A stretch of DNA of 64,000 nucleotides from Scenedesmus sp. ARA3 (taxonomy: Eukaryota > Chlorophyta > Chlorophyceae > Sphaeropleales > Scenedesmaceae), in assembly GCA_004335835.1 (NCBI GenBank), contig RWJK01001757.1, positions 33,514 to 97,513 on the forward strand, in the 5' to 3' direction. Within the stretch, counting starts at the first letter, position 1; each line of letters begins with the position of its first letter. Positions 4,637 through 63,646 of this stretch are shown here, in pieces. Both the position numbers and the translations under genes were made by a program. The notes below the pieces were generated by a model. It did no database searches. It saw only the letters and a list, made by a program, of their open reading frames with translations, and had not been told where the DNA came from.

Positions 4637-7600
4637 ATGCATAAAAGCTTAATCTTTGGGCTGCTGGGGCTCGGGCGTCACAGGCTGCGAGCTGGCAACT
4701 GCAGCAGGACCCTGTGCCAGTCCAGCTCAGCATCATCTGGCCAGGCAGCCTGCCAGGAAGCAGCAACAGCAGCACCACCAGCAGCATCCGCATCAGCACC
4801 AAGGCAGCTGCTCAGCCCTCCTCATGGCAGGCGCTACCTGCCTGCAGCTGTGCTATCGCAGCTGGCCCCCCAGGCACTGCCTGCTGCAGCAGCGTCGGTG
4901 GTGGCCCTGCAGCGGCAGGGCTGTGTGAGCATCACAGTGCAGTGCAGCCCAACTGCGGCCGGCACTCAAATATTGGTGAGTATGATTACGTGTGTAAGGA
5001 AACTTACAGCTGCCTGTGCCAGCAGTGCCCCTGCACAGTCACCAAGGCAGCTGGCAGCAGCACAGGAAGCGGGTGCATGACGTGGTCCTGGCACGCGTGT
5101 GCATAATCATATCACTGCAGCCTGCAGACCCTTGCTGTCTGGCTGCGGTGGAACCCTGCTACATTTGAGCATTACAGGGCAGAGAGCAGCTCTTGTCATG
5201 GCTCAGTCCCAGTCACTTATCACAGCGACAGTAGAGGCGCTCAACTGCCACCGTTGCTGAACACGTCTGAATTCATACACCCTGATGCACTCCTCAATCC
5301 AGGTCATCAATGGCGCTGCCAGCGGCGGCAGCAGCAGCAGCGGCAGTGCAGGCAGCAAGGCTGCAGCAGCTCTCAGCAGCACAGCGACTGCAGCAGCGGC
5401 GGGCGCCTGGCCCACGCTGCCCACCTGGCTGTTTGGCTTTGCCTGCGGCAGCGCAGCAGCAAGTGCCATGGCTTACAACTATCTCAAGCCACAGCCTGCT
5501 GCTGCAGCAGATGGCGGCAGCTGGCACAGCTTGGCCCGCTACTCTGCCCTGGCACATGGTGCCAGCAGCAGCAGCGGCAGCAGTCAGTTGTTGAGCAGCA
5601 GACTCACAGACATCAGCTTTCCCGGTAGTGACAGCAGCAGCCACACAACACAGGACAGTAGCAGCAGCAGCAGCAGCTGGAGCAACAGTTTGCTGGGCAG
5701 CATGTCTGCAGGGCTGGGCTACCTGCAGCAGCTGAGCAGGCTAGGCGCGGCATCAGCACACGGTGAGCGCAGCGCGCCGGGTGGCCAGCTTGCAGTGCTG
5801 CACTTCAGCTTTTTCTTGTGCAAACACCGTCAACATAACATCATTGGCACTCGTAGTTTGGTGGGCCCAGTTCATGCTGTGGCAGAAGTGGCTTGTTGAG
5901 AACATCCCACCTGCACAGCAGCATTGCTAGACCATGCGGATCATGCCTTGCGCATTTCGCTTGCTTATGGCATACATCAGCCACCTGTGCTGCTGCCTGC
6001 CTGCCGCACGTCTCCCACAGCTTCCACGGTGCCCTACCCTGACAGCAGGCTGCTGCCCACCCCCTGGGAGCAGCAGGGCCAGCCAGGCAGCAGCAGCATT
6101 GCAGGGCCAGCAGCAGCAGCAGCAGGCAGCAATGACGGCGATGCAGTGCTGATGCGCAGCAGCATCAGCGCTGCCGCTGCTGCTGCGGGGCCTGCCGTGG
6201 TGCACCTGGTGGCAGCAGGCGCGGCGCGTGGGCCAGCAGCAGCAGCAGCAGCGGGGCTGGGCCCTGGCTGGGCCGACGGCAGGTGGGCTGATGATGCTGA
6301 CATGTGTCAAAAACATGATACGGCCCAAGCCGCAGCACCGTGCATTCGTGCATCGCTGCGTTGTGTGCATTGTGCTAGCTGTTAAGTGGTGTGCTCAGGG
6401 CATGCATGTTGCTGCCAGCAGGCTGCGCTGGTGCACTCGGCAGCAGCGCGGCGTCTTGCAGGTCACCCATGTGCTGATGTCTTTTACAATGCAACACGGC
6501 CTATTTGTATGTCTCTTAATTAGTGATTGCTTCCTGCCCCTGCAGGGCCCAGGGCAGCGGCTTCATCTACGACCCGCGCGGCTTCATCCTCACCAACGCC
6601 CACGTTGTGCTGGGCACGCCCCCAGCAGCAGCATTGGCGGCAGCCACAGCCGCCACGCGCTGGCCACAGCAGCAGCAGCAGCAGCAGCGACACACCAGCA
6701 CCAGCCTGCGGCCACAGCCAGCCAGCAGCAGCAGCAGCAGCAGCAACCCCTCAGCAGCAGCAGCAGCAGGGGGTGTGTCGGCTGGCGGGCTGCGTGTGCA
6801 CCTTGCTGACGGGCGCGTGCTGCCGGGGCGGCTGGTGGCGCTGGACGCAGCCTCTGACCTGGCAGTGGTGGCGGTGGATGCGCCACAGCCGCTGCCCTGC
6901 GCACGCCTGGGCGACTCACACAGGTGCATGGTAGTGCAGCAGCGCAGGTGGTGGCAGCTGTGGCACTCCATGTGGGACCAGTGCAGAACGGCTGCCAGGT
7001 TGGGCCGAAAGTGAGCACAGGAGTTGTGCAAACTACTTGCACATCATGTACTGATTCGGTGAAGTGCGGCACCTCATGTTTCTCCCTGGCTTGTGGCTCG
7101 CCCTGCTCCCTGCTGCTGCTGCGTCTGCGGCCCAGGCTGCGTGTGGGCGAGTGGGTGGTGGCGCTGGGCAGCCCGCTGCTGCTGCGGCAGAGCGTGACCG
7201 CGGGCATCGTGAGCGCTGTGGCGCGCCAGGGCAGCGAGCTGGGCCTGGCCAGCCCCCGCACCGAGTTCATACAAACCGACGCAGCCATTAACGTGGGCAA
7301 CAGGTGGGCGAGGTGCCAGGGCATAAGCTGCAGTGCAAGCTTGCTTATGTTTTCCTTCATTCACTTTAAGAAGTGCCTTCCACATGCCTGGTTGCCATCC
7401 AGCTTCATTGTCGGAGAGATGTGATTGTCGCCGATGTGTTCATGTTCTGCCGTCGGCACCCTACCTGTCCCCTGCCTGCAAATGTCCTGCCTGGCTGCGT
7501 GCATGCCCTGCTTCTGCTTGCACTCTACTAGCCTGCAGCCTGTGGCAACACCTGCTGCTGTGCTGCTGCTGCTGCCATCGCTGCGACTGCCCGCTCCCCC

Positions 7601-7739
7601 TCATCGCGCAGCGGCGGCCCGCTTGTGAACCTGGATGGCGAGGTGGTGGGCATGAACAACATTTATTGTGCAACTTTACCTGCCGCATGCGGGAGCTGTA
7701 CCTGCCCGTAGTGAGCTTGATCCTATTCTGCTCAATATG

Positions 7740-7777
<38 letters not shown>

Positions 7778-9008
7778 ACCCTCTGCTGTCTCCCCTCATC
7801 AATGCAGCGGCGGCCCGTTGGTGAACCTGGATGGCGAGGTGGTGGGCATGAACAACATGAAGGCGGCGGCTGCGGATGGCGTCAGCTTTGCAATCCCCAT
7901 GCACACCATCCAGGAGCTGCTCTCCGAGATCGCACGGTGAGCCGCAGCGCAATAGAAGGGGCCCCGGGGGGCGGGGACCGGGGGAGAGGGGCGGGCTGCG
8001 CATGGTGCTGAGGTTGTAGGGGGTGGGGAAACGGGGCAGCACATGGCTGGCTGCAAGACAGGCAGGCATGCAGGCAGCTGCTGCAGCAGCCAGTCGCTGC
8101 AACCTGCACAGGGCACATGTGTGCAGCGAGCAATGTGCGGTTTGCTTATGCGGCTGTGCGCGCCGCGGCTTGGATCCGCAAGCGTCGTGTATAATGTGGC
8201 GACTGACGTCGTGCTGCTGCTGCTGCTGGGTGCAGGCATGGTCGTGTGCTGCGGCCCTACGTGGGCATCACCATGGCTGAGGTGGCGGCCAGCCGCATGG
8301 CACAGCTGCGGGAGGCGTGCCCAGGTGAGTTTCAGGCAGGTGCCTAGGTGGGCCCACAAGGCCCGGTGCAGCACGCACGTGATGCCTTGCAGCGGGCAAG
8401 CAGTGCAGTATGCGAGGTAGAGGATATGTAACTACCTTTTTTCAAGATAGAGGTTGTTGCACATGGTATGAAGAGGTGCAGACTCGTGTGCCACTGTGAC
8501 TGGCGTTGACAGCCTACTTCCCAACGCTTCCCGACACACACGCACAAGCTGGCATGCAACGATGCCTGCCGCGCCCGCTCCTGCCTTTTCTCTGCGACCT
8601 CTCCTCATCTCTGCTCCTGCACCTCCCTACCCCCCCCNCCCCGCCCACACACACACCCCAGACTTCCCGCCTGGCGTGGCAGCAGGCATCGTGGTGACGC
8701 GCGTGGCCCCCGGCAGCCCCGCAGCAGCAGCAGGCCTGCGCGAGGATGACGTCATCGTGGCGGCAGCAGCACCAGGCAGCGCCCCGGGGCAGCTGGGGGG
8801 GCCCGCAGGCCTCAGCGTGGCTGACCTGGCTGACGCGCTGCGAGATGCAATCGGCGGCAGCCTGGATCTGGTAGTGGTGAGGGAGCAGCGGCAGCAGCAG
8901 CAACAGGTGGCAGGGGCAGCAGCGGCAGCGCAGAGTGGGGCAGGCAGCAGCAGCAGGTATGTGTACGTGACTCTGACGGTGAGGCCTGTGGAAGCGCCTT
9001 CAAGTTAG
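4637..9008 (+). CDS. HtrA/Deg-type serine protease with PDZ domain, probably mitochondrial
   Basis: An ATP-independent trypsin-like protease of the DegP/HtrA family. Proposed exons: 4637-4975, 5303-5762, 6021-6282, 6546-6923, 7136-7303, 7808-7936, 8236-8324, 8662-9008; all phases agree and give 723 aa. The catalytic triad is visible: His in ILTNAHVV, Asp in AASDLAVV and Ser in [12 protein letters not shown]. The serine codon is split by an intron (AG|C). A C-terminal PDZ domain follows ([28 protein letters not shown]). The Arg/Ser-rich, acid-poor N-terminus ([20 protein letters not shown]) suggests an organelle-targeting peptide, and a hydrophobic stretch [17 protein letters not shown] could be a membrane anchor as in Deg14/HtrA2. 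The Ala/Ser/Gln-rich linkers make it longer than usual. A truncated copy of the catalytic-Ser exon precedes the real one. Confidence 0.88.
7612..7662 (+). repeat. Decoy copy of the HtrA catalytic-serine exon start
   Basis: Fifty-one bases matching 7808-7858 with two mismatches, preceded by a similar pyrimidine-rich acceptor ending in CAG. Spliced in, it would encode [17 protein letters not shown] and then run into a stop near 7711, losing the PDZ region. It is read as an internal tandem duplication inside the intron. Confidence 0.85.
7740..7779 (+). repeat. (CTG)n tract upstream of HtrA exon 6
   Basis: About 12 CTG triplets on the coding strand, roughly 30 bp upstream of the acceptor at 7807. 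It belongs to the same CTG-before-acceptor pattern seen elsewhere in the window. Confidence 0.8.
8638..8638. other. Ambiguous base (n)
   Basis: A single undetermined base within a C-rich run in the last HtrA intron. It does not affect the coding model. Confidence 0.99.
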
Positions 9009-50000: not shown

Positions 50001-51819
50001 TGCGGCAGTTTTGTGGGTGGCGGGTGCTGCGCGCCAGCGCCTGGCCTGCCCTGGTGCTGCAGCGCCTGCAGCTTGGTGGCTCCAGCAACAACTGTACTTG
50101 ACTGTTTCGGGCTGTGTGTCGTGTCGTTCTTTTGTTCGGACTGATCCGGCGTGGCTTGTTGGGTGATGCGGTGCTGTGTTGTCTGCAGTGCAGGACTACT
50201 CTGGTCATAGCGGTTGCTCAAGGCTGCTCAAAGGCCTTTCCAGGTACACATACACATACACAGATGTGCGCTGCCACAAGCAGCCGCATCTCAATTTTCC
50301 CTGGACTCATATCTTGTGGCCAGTGACTAGGCGGCCTGCTGAGTGGGCTCGGGGCACCCACGCAATCAATGGCGCACATTCGGCGCATGCTTCTTATTAC
50401 GGCTGCTGTCCAGCAGGCTACAGCTGGATGTGCAAGCTCTTGTCGAGGTTGACTGCTGTGCATACTGCAATGATGCTTGTCGAGGTTGACTGCTGTGCAT
50501 ACTGCAATGATGTTTTTGCACCGTGCTTGCAGCTCTGCTGCAAGGGAGCAGGGAGAGGGTCACAGACTTGTGCTGCTGAGTCGTGGTTCAACAAGCGCAG
50601 GTGCAGGGTTACAGACCTGCAGTGGCTCGTGCACAGAAACATGCACGCACGGCCTTCCATGTGGGCGCCATCGCTTGCCCTAAGGGCTGTTGGGGTGGGC
50701 AGTGGCAGCGCTGCATGAAGTGTGCGGTGTGCACCGTGCGCCTGTGTGGCTGTTGTTGGGTGGTGGCAAGCAGGCTACTAGGCCACGCTCGTGTGTAGGA
50801 GCAGCACTGTCATTGTGTCAATATACGTGTTGTGCAGGCTGCTGCTGCTGTCGGCTGATGTGCCAGGCAGGGGTGATGCACCAACCCCTGGCGTGGCTGG
50901 CAGCTGACAGGCAGGGGATGTGCCGAGTGTCTAAGCAGAGCTGGCTTGAGAACAGCCTCATCAGTCGCACACATACTATGCTAGTAGCACAGTCTGGGCT
51001 GGCAGATGGCTTGTGGTTCAACTGATGGTCAATGCATCTGTGTGTTGATGGCTGCAGTGGCGTCCAGCGCTGGTGTTTCTGCATTGGTGGCTGGTTGTCG
51101 AAACCAACGGTTGGTGATGTATGCACTGAAGCATCTGCTGTGCACATGGCGTGAGGCCAGCACAGCACACACAGCATGCTGGGGCAGGCTGCAGGGCTGC
51201 TGCCTCCGCATGGCTCAGCGTCATTGTCTCCTGGGGTGACAGTGCTGGAACGGCTTTCAGTTCCACGTGATGCGTTACAGAAGAGATGGAAATTGGCACG
51301 CAATACTGTTCGCGTGGCAGGTGTGATACTCACCACACAGATCATACCTGCCCGTAATTGTACACGTATGGGAGTTTGTGGGCAGGCGATGGGTTGAGCA
51401 GGCACGAGTGATTCTATGCAGGCTGGCTGCATGGCGTTGGTGATTGGCCTTGCATGGTAACAATGCACAGACGAGGGTAAACTTGCTGGTCCACATTGCT
51501 CCAAGTTGTGGCTACCAAAATTTATCATTTCAAAGTATTTCAACATGCTAAACACATCCAATGCTGGGCACAGCACGCACTGCTAGTGTGCTATAATGCA
51601 GCACTGCCGCAGCCGCTGGCGGTGCTGCCCACCCCAACTTCTTGAGAGAGGAGGAAATTGTCCAGGTTACATCTTTGGCAGAGTGCTAATGGCACCAGCT
51701 CCCACACACTACAAAGAAGACGAAACGCATGCATTGGAGTAAAGAGTCACAGTTGGCAGCGTTACCCGAGGCTGCCTTACTGCACAACCACAACAGCATT
51801 GCTTGAAGGTGCGCAGCTG
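47096..51819. other. Long convergent intergenic region, G/T-rich on plus strand
   Basis: Nearly 5 kb between the convergent kinase and TBCC genes without a recognisable exon. To about 51 kb the plus strand is G/T-rich, low in CAG tracts, with occasional T runs. It is probably an extended 3' UTR or 3' flank of the kinase gene. Short tandem duplications occur at about 49568-49609 (21-bp unit, twice) and 50439-50512. Confidence 0.5.
50439..50512. repeat. 37-bp perfect tandem duplication
   Basis: The unit beginning cttgtcgaggttgactgctg occurs twice head to tail (50439-50475 and 50476-50512) without mismatch. It is in non-coding DNA and so looks recent. Confidence 0.9.
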
Positions 51820-57831: not shown

Positions 57832-60792
57832 GCGCCAGGTGACGTACGGGTCGTTTGGCGTGGTGTGGGACCTGGGCTCCTTTGGGCTGCTCAGCCCTGC
57901 ACAGGAGGAGGCAGCATACCTGTGGGCGGAGCTGGCCTCCAAGGTGGGGTCATGCTTGTGACAATGCTGAAACTAGTCATACCAGCACTAGTCGCCTCGA
58001 TGCAGCGAGGGTTGTTTGTTATGACTGAACATGATTGTTTGGGGAGCTGGCCTGCAAGGTGAGCAGAGCTGCGCTGGCATGTGCAGATAAGATTGTAATA
58101 GATTGTTCGTGCCCAGGGAGCAGGGGAGCATGATGTGACTCGACATGTGCTGTGTGTCGTAGCAGCTGCGCTCGGCACAGGCTGTGGCACTTCTAAATCC
58201 GCCTGAGCTGGCTGCGGCTGCTGTTGTGGTGTGCGCACAGCTGGAGGGGCGGATGTCACCTGGTCAGAGGCATGGTGCTGCGCTGGTGCCCCTTGAGCGG
58301 CCAATACAGTGTCCAGCAACAGCTTGCTACTTGTTAACCTGCCAGTGACGCAGCCAGCTGACCTTACTGCTGTCTGCCGCCGCTGCTGCTGCCCCCGCTG
58401 CCGCGCCAGATCCTCATCTCCACGGTGCTGCTCTTCTCCAACTTTGTCACGCGCGACATGCGCCGCCTGGCGCTCATGCGCAGCATCGAGGCGCAGTCGC
58501 GGCAGCAGCTCATCGCTGAGCTGCGGGCGCTGGTGGCGCAGAAGGATGCCTTCATGAGCAGCGTGAGCCATGAGCTGCGCACGCCTCTCAACGGCATCAT
58601 AGGTGCGCGCAGTGTTTTAGGGGAGGTCAGGGACGCGGGGGGTCTTTCTTGTTTTTTTTGCCCTCCTGCAGTCTAGACCTAGGCCATGCTGGCCATCAGC
58701 GCAGTGCACGTCACACAAAGCGCTGTTTCTGCGTTTGCGGCAGCACCTGTGCTTGTGCAGCTGCAGCTGCAGCATCAATAAAGCATGTTCCATGTGCTTT
58801 GCGGCCAGCTGTTCCCACACGCACAGAAAGCGGCGTCCAGTGCACGCCGTCATGTGCAGCCACATTCGAACATGCGGAGCCCGACCAGTCCTTACTGCTC
58901 GCTGCTGCCGTTGCCGCTGTGCATGTTGCTGCAGGCCTGTCTGAGGCGGCGCTGCACAACAGCGACCTGGCGCAGCAGGCGGGGCCGGCGGGCGCGCCGC
59001 ACGTGCTGCCGCCAGCCACGCGGCAGCAGCTGGCACTCATCCGCACCTCAGGTGGGGTCGGCGCTGAGTTGCTGCCCACACACGCTGTCAATGCTGCTGC
59101 TTGAACACTGAGCTTGACACTGCAGAAGCCAATGCAGGGCAGCTGCCAGATTCACGCAGTGCTCAAGGGCGCCGCCCTGCCACCTGCCCGGCGCTGCCTT
59201 GAGCGAGTGAGTGAGTGGCTATTCAGGCAGCTCTGCAGTTCCTGGGTAAGTTAAGGCTGGAGAAGGCGTGTGTGGCCAGGGGCGGCGCCTTGCTACTGCC
59301 TGGTTGCGCCACTTTGCGGCTGGCTGGTCATTGAACAGCTACACACTGCTCCGCCTGCTGCTGGCTCTGCTGCTGCTGCTCGTGCTGCTGCTGTGCCTGC
59401 TGCCTGCCCAGGGCTGCGCCTGCTGAGCCTGGCTGTGCCACTTTGCGTCTGGTTGTGCTGTGCACCTCACTGTTGCCTCTGCTGCTGCTGCTGCTGCAGG
59501 GCTGCGTCTGCTGAGCCTGGTGAACGACATCCTGGACGCCGCCGCGCTCCAGCACAGCCGGCTGGTGCTGGCACGGGGCAGGGTGGTGCTGCGGCCCCTG
59601 GTGGAGGAGGTGGCGGACATATCCAGGCCGCTGGTAAGCAATTTCTGCAACTTTGGCAGCTACGTGGCAGCAAGCATGCCGTTTAATGTGCTGTGCATGC
59701 ATCAGCAGGCCACTGGTGCGCAGTTTTGCAATTTTCGTAGCTGCATGGCCCCTGGTGGAGGAGGTGGCAGACATCAGCAGGCCGCTGGTGCGTGATGTGG
59801 CTTTTCCTTATTCCTTTTTGGATGCCCGTTTTCCTGTTCCCCGTGCGGTCAGCTACGCGGCTGTACCACTACGCAAGGGCAGTGCCAGGGGAGCAGAGCA
59901 AGGTGCGTTCAGCCTGTGCTGTTGCCTGGCCAACACTGCTGCACTGCTGCTGCCCCCTGCTGCTGCCCCCTGCCGCCCCTGCTGTGGCTCTATGCATGTG
60001 CAGCCACCGCTGCAGCTGCACGAACCGCAGAGTGCACAGGCTCATTCAACTGTAGTGGCTGCTGGCAGCGCTGTCCATAGTGTGCGCATGCCTTGCAGCG
60101 TGCTCTGAACTGAAGCTCTTCTGTGCTGTCTCTGCCCCTGCCTTGGTGTTGCTGCTGCAGCTGCGCGACCGTGCGCTGCGGCTGGTGACGCGTGTGCCGC
60201 ACGACCTGGAGGTGCTGGGCGACGCCGACCGCATCGTGCAGGTGCGCTGCTATAATGCTCTCATCACAGCAGCAGCCAATTGCTCATCATTATGCAAACC
60301 CTAAACCCTTGGGCTTGGCATGCATGACCTGGAGGTGCTGGGCGATGCTGACAGGGTCGTGCATGTAAGGATGCTGGCAGGGAGCCGCAACATCGGCTTA
60401 ATGTTTGAATATCATGCAGTATGCCTAGCATTATGCAGCGACCTGGAGGTGCTGGGGGGTGCTGACAGGATCGTGCAGGTGCGCACTATGGGCTGCAGCA
60501 GCAGCAGTAGTATCATTGCGCATCATCATGGAGTGTGCTTGGCATGCGGGGCCTGGAGGTGCTGGGGGATGCTGACAGGGCCGTGCAGGTGCGCTGCTGC
60601 TCGCAGCAGCACGCAATACCGAGCGCTACACTGAATCCTGATTGCATGGTGTGTGTTGTGCGCCGCCTGCCGCTACCCAGCACTGCATCGCCAAGCGGTT
60701 TCAACTTCTGCATGCTGGACAATACGTGTAGGCTTGTTGGTGTCCTGCTGCCAAAGCTGAGTGCGCTTGCATGCGCCTGCGTCACGCGTGTC

Positions 60793-60890
<98 letters not shown>

Positions 60891-61324
60891 GCCAGGTGCT
60901 GAACAACCTGGTGAGCAACGCAGCCAAGTTCACCGAGGCAGGCACTATCACCATATCAGCACGGGTAGGGCGCCAGCCCCCACACAACAGCAGCAGCAGC
61001 CGCGCCAGCAGCAGGGCAGGCAGCAGGCCAGGCAGCAGCAGCGGCGCGCGCCTCAAGCCCAGCGGCAGCGGCGCTGCTGCTGCTGCTGCTGCTGCTGCTG
61101 CCGGCCCGCAGGAGGTGGTGCTGGTGTCAGTGGAGGACACCGGGCTGGGCATTCCTGAGGAGAAGCTGCAGGCGGTGTTTGAGGCCTTCGAGCAGGTGTG
61201 GTTGCAGCAGCAACAGCAGCAGCAGGGCCATGGATGTCGCATGGTTTGGGCACCTTGCATGTGGTCGGGCAGTATATGTGAATGAGGCCTTTGAGCATGT
61301 GCGGCGGCTTGCACTGACACCATG

Positions 61325-61355
<31 letters not shown>

Positions 61356-61521
61356 TTGGATGTTGCATGGTTCAGCACCTTGCGTATGGGCTAGCTATAT
61401 GTGTGTTTGAGGCCTTCAAGCAGGTGTTGGGGCTTGCATTAATGCCACGAATCACCTTCTGTGGAAGACGGCAGTAGCAGCAGAGCTCCGGCAGGTTTCT
61501 GTTGCATGAACTTCAAACCGC

Positions 61522-61565
<44 letters not shown>

Positions 61566-63646
61566 AGGTGCACACTGACATCAGCCGCAGCCAGCGCGGG
61601 CTGGGCCTGGGGCTGAGCATTGTGCGGCAGCTTGTTGACGCCATGGGGGGCAGCATCTCCGCCAGCAGCGTGGTGGGCAGCGGCACCACCTTCACCTTCT
61701 CACTGCCACGCTACACGCCAGAGGCAGCAGCAGCAGCAGCAGCAGAAGCAGCGCAGGCATCAGCACAGGTGCCAGCGCCAGAGGAAGACACACTCGCTGC
61801 TGCTGCTGCTGCTGTTAGCGCCAAAGCTATGGGCAGCAGCAGCCCCAGCCCCAGCGCAGCAGCGTCGCGCAGCGCTGCGGGCGGCGGCGCGGGCCAGCGG
61901 CGGCTGCTGACTGACCGGCAGGCGGTGCTGGCCATGGGCAGCGCTGCTGTCGCCGCGAGCTACTCCGCTGCTGTTGCGACGGCTGGCGGCGGCAGGCGCG
62001 GTAGCGCGCCTGCTGTGGGCGGCACAGGGGCCATGGGGGCTATGGGGAGTCTGGCTGCTGAGCTGGCCGGGCTGGCGGCATCAGAAGGCTTTGGTGGCGG
62101 CGGCGGCGGCAGGATGCGCTCGGCTGGCGGCAGCTTGCGGGATGCTGCTGCTGGCGGCGGCAGCCCTGCTGCTGCTGCTGCTGCTGGGTGGGATAACATG
62201 CACGACGGCGGCGGCAACATTGGAGGCAATGATGGTGATAATGCGGATGGAGTGCATGATGGCAATGGCAGTGACGATGATGATAGTTGGGCGCTGCAGC
62301 AGCCGCTGGTGCCTAGCCCGCTGGCTGGCAGGCGGAGTGATGTTGCCGCAGTGCTGGCTGACGAGCAGGCAGCAGCAGCGCTGCCGCACATGCAGCGCTG
62401 GCCGCAGGGCGGCAGCCAGCAGCAGCAGCAGCAGCTGAGTCGTGAGCGCAGCAGCATTCCTGCGATGCAGTTCCACAGCCAGGTGAAGGGTGGGCGTGTG
62501 CAGCTGCTGGTGGTGGACGACGACCCGCTGAACCACCAGGTGGGGTGGGGTGGGTTGGTTCAGGGTTTGTATTTGTCTTCAGACCTGCTCATGTATGCTG
62601 GCAAGTTTTGTTGAAGCTGCTGCTGGTGGTGGAGGACGACCCACTAAACCACCAGGTAGGGCGGGGCTTTGGTTTTTCAGGCAGGCGTTTCAGGCTTTGA
62701 GCCTCGAACATACTCATGTGTCTGAGGAGGAAACAGCACATGTATGCCACAGGGATGTGTGCATAACTTTCGTGCTTGGGCACTGTAAGTACTTTTCACG
62801 CGCAGGTATGCTGATCAGTCCTGCGTAAGTCACGATTATAGGGAGTCCTGTTAGCAGTGTAGCAGTGCCGCCTATGCAGCACCTGGGCAGCAGCTGAGTT
62901 GCGAACTGCGCCTGCTGCTGCTGGTTGCTGCTGCTGCTGTCAGGTGCTGTCGCTGCTGCTGGAGGCTGCTGGCTTCAGCCTGGTGCACGTGATGAGTGGC
63001 GCCGCCACGCTGGCCTTCCTGGCGGCCTGTGAGCTGCTGCCTGACCTGGTGCTGCTGGATGTGAGTGGGGTGTGAACAGTGGTGCATCCAGTCACTTTGG
63101 CCCACAGGTAGAGGGCGTGGAGCCCAGGGGCGCCGCGCCTGGCCACACACGCCTTCTCCAGCCTTGACTTACCCAGGAGCGAGAGCTGCCTGGGTAGTCA
63201 CTCACTCACCCACTCACTTTGGGTCACTGTTGCTTGGTTGCACTATACTGTGCGTCTGTATGTGTAGTTGTGGGGCCACAAGTGTTCTGCGTGGCAGTAC
63301 CGCCAGGCTTTTAGTTGCAGCTGCACAACAAGCAACATACAATAGGGCATGTCTCATTGCAGCTGCTCTAGCCGACGCTATCAGCTAGACTGATGGCCGC
63401 CGCCGCTGCTTCACTGCTGTTGCTGCTGCTGCTGCTGCTTCCTATGCAGGTGGCGATGCCAGGCATGGATGGTCGGGAGGTGAGGCGAGACTGGCAGCAG
63501 CAGCAGCAGCAGACCAACTGGGCAGCTGCTTCTGCTGTGCTGCCATGGAGTTTGTAGCAAGGGGTGCAACTAGCATGGCTGTGCAGGTGGTACATGGCAT
63601 GTGTCATTGTGCCGTGTGTCCCGGCTGGTGCTCCACGCTTTATTGA

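What the first reader, a model, noticed from the sequence alone, without database searches (positions are those of the whole stretch)
57839..62660. Exon-end 'echoes': a repeated pattern of exon boundaries copied into the next intron
In one gene at least five different exon ends, with their donor or acceptor, recur in the adjacent intron as diverged copies. Donor-to-donor spacings are mostly near 116 bp (115, 123, 114, 110, 103, 125, 116). The same happens in the HtrA, eIF2B gamma and GPC-acyltransferase genes (spacings near 150-196). Internal tandem duplication containing AG|GT is a proposed route of intron gain or lengthening. A recurrent near-constant unit length across unrelated exons suggests one mechanism (replication slippage, nucleosome-sized repair unit or an introner-like process). 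I know of no description of such a systematic pattern.
Basis: partly seen in the sequence, partly recalled or inferred. Interest (0 to 1): 0.88.

Follow-up and report, generated by a model that had tools for sequence, protein, structure and literature searches.

The report
Exon ends echoed in algal introns
In a green alga very close to Tetradesmus obliquus, short tandem duplications of about 100-160 bases keep copying the ends of exons, with their splice sites, into the neighbouring introns, and the exon-derived part of these apparently unused copies stays oddly well preserved, which offers a testable route by which introns grow.

Summary
In 314 kb of the same genome, predicted exon ends have nearby copies (58/361 probes) more often than intron middles (18/475), with 0 at distant offsets for both. 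Spacing is not flat: 47/93 families lie at 100-159 bp, 19/93 at 220-279. The origin looks like ordinary tandem duplication, not exon-end targeting: the junction-to-intron ratio matches random placement (0.74 vs 0.70) and purely intronic duplicates share the spacing. Odd is what follows: exon-derived cores and functional donor positions stay alike while intron parts decay, contrary to a neutral simulation. Copies lack an excess of acceptors and would nearly always break the protein; two annotated T. obliquus kinases skip them. I favour tandem duplication followed by exchange between copies and the working exon end; the exchange step is inferred and only weakly supported. New variant of a known kind.

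The parts
57839..57943 (+). histidine kinase exon (...ELASK|), donor 57944
   Evidence: echo-free protein 98% identical to two Tetradesmus obliquus kinases over 100% of the query
58043..58060 (+). echo of that exon end with donor GT at 58059
   Evidence: (P<=0.008)
59500..59633 (+). exon (...VADISRPL|), donor 59634
59412..59432 (+). echo of the exon start of 59500 in the preceding intron, after an AG
   Evidence: offset -88, P<=0.008
59747..59789 (+). echo of exon end, donor 59788
   Evidence: 43 nt, 91%, offset 154
60161..60241 (+). exon (...DLEVLGDADRIVQ|), donor 60242
60322..60366 (+). echo 1, donor 60365 (GTAAGG)
   Evidence: offset 123
60439..60484 (+). echo 2, donor 60479 (GTGCGC)
   Evidence: offset 237
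60552..60598 (+). echo 3, donor 60589 (GTGCGC)
   Evidence: offset 347
60896..61195 (+). exon (...VFEAFEQ|), donor 61196
61284..61300 (+). echo 1 of that exon end, donor 61299
   Evidence: pair 61250-61313 with 61375, offset 125; period 125 at 61204-61438
61403..61427 (+). echo 2, donor 61424
   Evidence: 25 nt, 96%, offset 228
61568..62539 (+). exon (...VVDDDPLNHQ|), donor 62540
62616..62658 (+). echo of that exon end, donor 62656
   Evidence: offset 116
7608..7662 (+). exon-start copy 196 bp upstream of the predicted exon starting at 7808
   Evidence: 55 nt, 96%; exon from home-made gene finder

Best explanation
Short head-to-tail duplications (mostly 100-160 bp, a second class near 250 bp) arise in gene bodies of this alga without aiming at exon ends. 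When a unit spans a donor, the upstream donor goes on being used and the copied exon end plus donor is left inside the intron; at an acceptor the mirror image happens. Repetition builds arrays and lengthens introns. Afterwards the exon-derived cores (about 30-60 nt plus the splice site) keep exchanging sequence with the working exon end, by gene conversion or unequal crossing-over between the repeats, so they stay alike and are indirectly held to exon and splice-site constraint, while the intron parts drift apart. SHOWN: copies, spacing, placement, exon/intron asymmetry, retained splice-site positions, absence of the kinase echoes from two annotated proteins. INFERRED: which enzyme makes the duplications, that introns have grown by it, and the exchange step.
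For: Young arrays include intron sequence (donor 7949 of L021, 111-bp unit, intron parts 0.93 identical); 15 of 50 donor pairs have homologous intron sides (z>3), 23 of 50 have z<=1.5. Pairs found only by exon -60..-21 keep 0.85 identity at -6..-1, 0.53 at +7..+12, about 0.3-0.4 beyond (34 pairs from 470 probes); exon-side probes find 34 and 49 pairs (470, 480 probes), intron-side probes 8 (506). Donor differences in 41 credible pairs (of 49): +1 3, +2 2, +5 4, but +3 11, +4 17, +6 20, +7..+12 16-26. AG kept in 27 of 31 credible acceptor pairs (of 37). Differences by codon position 65:44:133 (51 donor pairs) and 44:46:109 (acceptor pairs); changes private to one echo 16:14:39 (12 hand-picked families). 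Exon-echo and echo-echo core identity nearly equal (0.871 and 0.861; 37 and 32 pairs from 19 hand-picked seeds). Conflicting site pairs in seven core alignments 34 of 55 against a tree-like null of 8.5 of 30.4 (count reached in 1/500, fraction in 6/500).
Against: With codon-position rates, transition bias and then rate variation the conflict fraction is reached in 8, 27 and 40 of 400 simulations; the intron parts of the same six donor arrays show 71 of 140 conflicting pairs, so conflict is not special to the cores (those alignments are near noise, identity 0.46-0.61). The exchange signal is therefore weak. Echo-private changes can include exon changes made before a later copy. Echoes were chosen by similarity to the exon, which biases that comparison. 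The simulation rests on rates I chose. The GARP-type domain scored no better without its echo than with it (36.8 vs 37.6 bits). Predicted introns with duplicates were not clearly longer than others (median 170.5 vs 203, mean 244 vs 238), though the gene finder often calls echoes exons and so splits introns. No allele, second strain or RNA read was available.
Confidence: 0.45

Rival explanations
1. Plain tandem duplication with neutral decay: the echoes are dead copies and the exon side looks better only because the exon itself changes slowly.
For: Explains origin, spacing shared with intron-only duplicates and random placement; some echoes carry frameshifts or stops.
Against: In the simulation no detected pair has intron z<1.5 up to K=0.15 per lineage (mean core identity 0.75), 3% at 0.2 and 10% at 0.25, whereas 23 of 50 real pairs have z<=1.5; donor positions +1, +2, +5 are far better kept than +4, +6 and beyond.
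Confidence: 0.22
2. Copies start out different: the duplications form by unequal recombination between diverged alleles, so exon-echo differences are ordinary allelic differences (silent-biased, introns diverged) rather than later change.
For: Would account for third-position bias, intact but non-identical donors and diverged introns at once.
Against: Arrays of 4-6 copies with similar mutual divergence need repeated events; intron divergence looks larger than third-position divergence would allow; no second copy of three loci in the assembly to test it.
Confidence: 0.18
3. Echoes are directly functional: spare or alternative exons, decoy donors, or steps in stepwise splicing.
For: Retained donors and third-position bias.
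Against: No excess of acceptors at echo 5' ends (0.32 of 47 echoes vs 0.37 of random intron windows); use of the echo donor would be readable in frame in 2 of 41 credible pairs; two annotated T. obliquus kinases run across seven junctions checked; in six printed RAD16-like proteins WWNP runs straight into the next exon's motif, 18 of 120 by a strict pattern.
Confidence: 0.1
4. Introner-like or transposon insertion with long target-site duplication.
For: Exon side repeated, intron side unrelated in many pairs.
Against: Own-genome searches with three arrays return, beside the self match, triplet-rich or short coding matches (candidates capped, list cut, simple repeats skipped by the tool); young copies repeat the intron part too.
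Confidence: 0.03
5. Chance or assembly artefact.
For: Only one assembly seen; low-complexity sequence is common.
Against: Near/far contrast 303 against 9 segments over 26 stretches, 24 of them with near hits; copies are diverged, not identical, and differ in flanks.
Confidence: 0.02

Closest known systems
[quoted passage not shown] potato RdRp case PMC4974935, review PMC3443670; passages seen)
   Same: Short tandem duplication inside a gene, splice signals inherited from the parental junction. The potato paper also mentions an 83-bp tandem duplication inside an intron that left the gene structure unchanged.
   Different: Here an existing intron holds the copies rather than a new one being made; many genes, repeated copies, preferred unit size, cores preserved.
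Internal gene duplication surveys (Gao and Lynch 2009, known from citation in PMC4974935 and recall)
   Same: Tandem duplicated gene segments, in part holding splice sites (recalled).
   Different: As recalled, those stress duplicated exons and new introns; these copies are apparently unused exon ends.
Small tandem duplications from fill-in at staggered breaks (PMC8355091, passages seen)
   Same: A documented way to make short tandem duplications, in mouse cells.
   Different: Overhangs named in the passages are 43 and 49 bp; unit sizes here 100-160 and about 250 bp; no link tested.
Introner elements (PMC3443670 passages; recall)
   Same: Repeated sequence with splice sites in algal introns.
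   Different: Introners are dispersed kin in unrelated genes; the arrays searched resemble their own exon.
Concerted evolution of tandem repeats (recall)
   Same: Copies stay alike through exchange.
   Different: Only the exon-derived core stays alike, next to a splice site; one copy is functional; exchange not shown.

Membership tests
Tandem genomic duplication within genes | head-to-tail copies at short distance | tested here: met
Intron gain by tandem duplication (AGGT model) | a new intron arises from duplicated exon sequence | tested here: not met
   in the kinase the echoes lie inside introns of the annotated gene; proteins P0001 and P0002 run across the seven junctions checked; not tested for other genes
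Introner elements | related copies dispersed in unrelated genes | tested here: not met
   three arrays searched: beside the self match only triplet-rich or short coding matches; candidates capped, list truncated
Duplicated alternative exons | copy bounded by acceptor and donor | tested here: not met
   0.32 of 47 echo 5' ends reach the acceptor threshold, 0.37 of random intron windows
Duplicated alternative exons | copy can be read in frame | tested here: not met
   2 of 41 credible pairs readable when the echo donor is used
Concerted evolution by exchange | mosaic sharing of variants among copies | tested here: inconclusive
   cores 34 of 55 conflicting pairs, null fraction reached in 6/500 and 8-40/400 under other nulls; intron parts 71 of 140
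Concerted evolution by exchange | copy-number change between individuals | not testable with these tools
   no second strain held and no second allele found for three loci
Ordinary minisatellite | found as a contiguous tandem array of similar units | tested here: inconclusive
   of the kinase echo arrays Tandem Repeats Finder reports only 61204-61438 (period 125)

The most novel reading that the evidence does not exclude
Introns of this alga carry recombination-maintained reservoirs of interchangeable exon ends: each spare exon end with its splice site is brought into service from time to time by repeat-mediated deletion or conversion, so unused intronic copies are under indirect purifying selection for both coding and splicing, and the arrays drive intron growth.
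Probability: 0.3. Interest if true: 0.82.

Novelty: new variant of a known kind. Interest (0 to 1): 0.62.

Why it matters
A published table gives Tetradesmus obliquus a mean intron of 462 bp against 230, 302 and 284 bp in three other Sphaeropleales and 270 bp in Chlamydomonas (PMC5966456, passage with Table 1). Detectable near-duplicate spans cover 12.3% of predicted intron bases in my sample, so repeated duplication across junctions is a plausible, countable cause of intron growth, though it is not shown here that it made the introns longer. If the exchange model holds, intronic sequence that is never translated is nevertheless held to coding constraint, which would mislead gene finders (mine called several echoes exons) and tests of selection. 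Two annotation sets of T. obliquus appear among public proteins, so strain comparison and splicing use should be testable.

Tried and rejected
Rfam and tRNA scans of the window found nothing. Introner and target-site models: disfavoured on three arrays. Alternative-exon model: disfavoured on acceptors and reading frame. Domain scores as a test of echo exclusion: the GARP-type piece (label recalled) scored 36.8 bits without and 37.6 with its echo, so this did not discriminate; a haem-oxygenase-like piece (label recalled) matched no family. Telomere-like filler in spacers: CCCTAAA occurs 13 times in the sample, one of them in a kinase echo spacer (60299); not pursued. The 250-bp class as two 125-bp units: 1 of 18 families reached p<0.05 for an intermediate copy, but the null sometimes drew the true second copy; six had mid matches scoring 15 or more, so both kinds seem to exist. 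Junction enrichment: block-level 59 of 93 against 40.7 (sd 4.5) expected, but the fairer junction-to-intron ratio shows none overall (79 families; L020 and L026 left out as protein-repeat loci); for blocks >=50 nt and >=85% identity it was 0.93 vs 0.75 (11/300), for >=60 nt and >=88% 57/300, for >=60 nt and >=92% 107/300. Cross-locus spacer hits: 91 at E<0.01 for 39 spacers; of the 20 printed one was long (L011 with L004, 126 nt, 92%), the rest 17-45 nt. Structure prediction, the padloc, phrogs and ncbifam libraries and collection scans were not used. One search failed on a script error and was repeated. Literature searches: (open-licence papers only; titles and abstract openings, some lists capped; passages of PMC4974935, PMC3443670, PMC5966456 and PMC8355091): none of what I saw described this pattern.
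Full report
WHAT WAS EXAMINED. The window is G000:C1351:33514-97513 of an 87.3-Mb, 1567-contig assembly. Beside it I read 25 stretches of 10 kb: four beside the window and 21 from the starts of other contigs, 314 kb in all, with N runs in some (L002 has 7747). A home-made hidden Markov gene finder, trained on the sample itself, gave 544 donors and 541 acceptors; its exons are predictions, and it calls several echoes exons, so some probes below are echoes themselves.

THE GENE. Ten exons between 57839 and 63766 join to an open 707-residue stretch with HisKA, HATPase_c and receiver domains. It is 98% identical over its whole length to two annotated Tetradesmus obliquus kinases, so the organism is that species or very close. 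At seven junctions checked both annotated proteins run straight across, without any echo. The gene continues beyond the part I joined.

THE OBSERVATION. Five of nine donors have a copy in their own intron that beats all 120 null introns; four do not; of nine exon starts one does so clearly and one is borderline.

GENOME-WIDE. Near offsets give 303 segments and far offsets 9 over 26 stretches. Of usable 40-nt probes, those with a near copy (score >=18) were: exon ends 58 of 361, exon starts 35 of 357, exon middles 10 of 208, intron 5' ends 15 of 473, intron middles 18 of 475, intron 3' ends 26 of 425, intergenic 5 of 276; at distant offsets 0 in every class but intergenic (1). Exon-end copies lie mostly downstream (41 of 58), exon-start copies mostly upstream (24 of 35); some of the opposite ones are the same pair seen from an echo called an exon. 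The density is very uneven: L023 51 near segments, L026 37, L018 36, L024 36, L020 24, L007 23, but none or one in L006, L008-L010, L012, L015, L017, L019 and L022; those of L020 and many of L026 are in-frame protein repeats. L023 encodes a cohesin SA protein (SCD domain; relatives, of which P0121 looks transcript-derived by its name) and L024 a RAD16-like helicase (63% to a Volvox protein over the whole echo-free query).

SPACING. Of 93 families with spacing 80-599, 47 lie at 100-159 and 19 at 220-279. Families wholly inside introns (14 with spacing over 80, some perhaps parts of one duplication) show the same: six at 103-129, four at 247-250. The unit size therefore seems to belong to the duplication process, not to exons.

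NOT AIMED AT EXON ENDS. Against random placement the ratio of junction to intron-only families is 0.74 against 0.70 (78 of 300 simulations reach it); exon-only families are fewer than random (6 vs 13) and so are intergenic ones (3 vs 13) (79 families after leaving out L020 and L026). In the subset of blocks >=50 nt and >=85% identity the ratio is higher than random (0.93 vs 0.75, 11 of 300), in two stricter subsets not clearly. Fewer exon-only families is expected from selection. The shortage between genes suggests that gene bodies are favoured, or that intergenic copies decay faster.

WHAT IS ODD. Duplications that look young include the intron part. Yet in 23 of 50 donor pairs the intron sides are no longer recognisably alike while the exon sides are mostly 0.8-1.0 identical. 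In pairs found only by exon sequence -60..-21, identity is 0.85 just before the donor and 0.53 from +7; the acceptor side mirrors this. A neutral simulation, with rates that I chose, gives no such pairs up to K=0.15 per lineage, 3% of detected pairs at 0.2, 10% at 0.25 and 48% at 0.3, where only 6% of copies are detected at all. Donor positions that matter for splicing (+1, +2, +5) differ in 2-4 of 41 pairs, more indifferent ones (+4, +6) in 17 and 20. Differences fall mostly at third codon positions (133 of 242 and 109 of 199). By my own estimate, not a call, a dead echo beside a constrained exon should give about 44%. Changes private to one echo are also biased (39 of 69), with the caveat that some may be earlier exon changes.

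WHY NOT DIRECT FUNCTION. Echoes have no excess of acceptors upstream. Using an echo donor would be readable in only 2 of 41 cases. Annotated or homologous proteins run across the junctions where I looked. No RNA data were available.

EXCHANGE. Exon-echo and echo-echo core identity are almost equal (0.871, 0.861), which a star of dead copies would not give, though copies made from copies, or the way echoes were chosen, could. Variant conflicts in seven core alignments exceed a tree-like null (34 of 55 against 8.5 of 30.4), less convincingly when site rates vary, and the intron parts show 71 of 140, so this test does not single out the cores. Exchange between copies and the working exon would explain the preserved cores, the kept donors and the silent-site bias together: any repeat-mediated deletion or conversion puts a spare exon end into service, so spare cores are tested by selection now and then, and intron parts never are. 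This step is inferred.

KNOWN OR NEW. Tandem duplication as a source of introns is well described (PMC4974935, PMC3443670, passages). In the listings and abstract openings of eight searches of the open-licence library (some lists capped) I saw no description of recurrent exon-end copies with a preferred unit and preserved cores; subscription papers were not searched. I rate it a new variant of a known kind.

Noticed in passing
L005:9371-9980 and L002:17-850 (contig C1351, upstream of the window): A run of roughly 290-320-bp tandem units at 80-87% identity, some ending in GGTAAGG, that looks like repeated exons of one gene.
   Followed up: no
L006:65-92: CCCTAAA repeats close to the start of contig C1, possibly a telomere-near end.
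   Followed up: no
whole 314-kb sample: Near duplicates are scarce between genes (3 families against 13 expected by random placement), hinting that duplication goes with gene bodies.
   Followed up: partly
window 60794-60889: A perfect run of 32 CTG triplets inside the intron; the learned acceptor profile favours TGCTGCTG..TGCAG.
   Followed up: no
L011 spacer (minus strand, oriented position 7448 on), and L004:8325-8449: 126 nt shared at 92% between two unrelated stretches, perhaps a dispersed element.
   Followed up: no
L020 and L026: Loci rich in in-frame repeats of coding sequence (spacings multiples of three), unlike the echoes.
   Followed up: no
window 50439-50512: A perfect 37-bp duplication in a predicted intron.
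   Followed up: no
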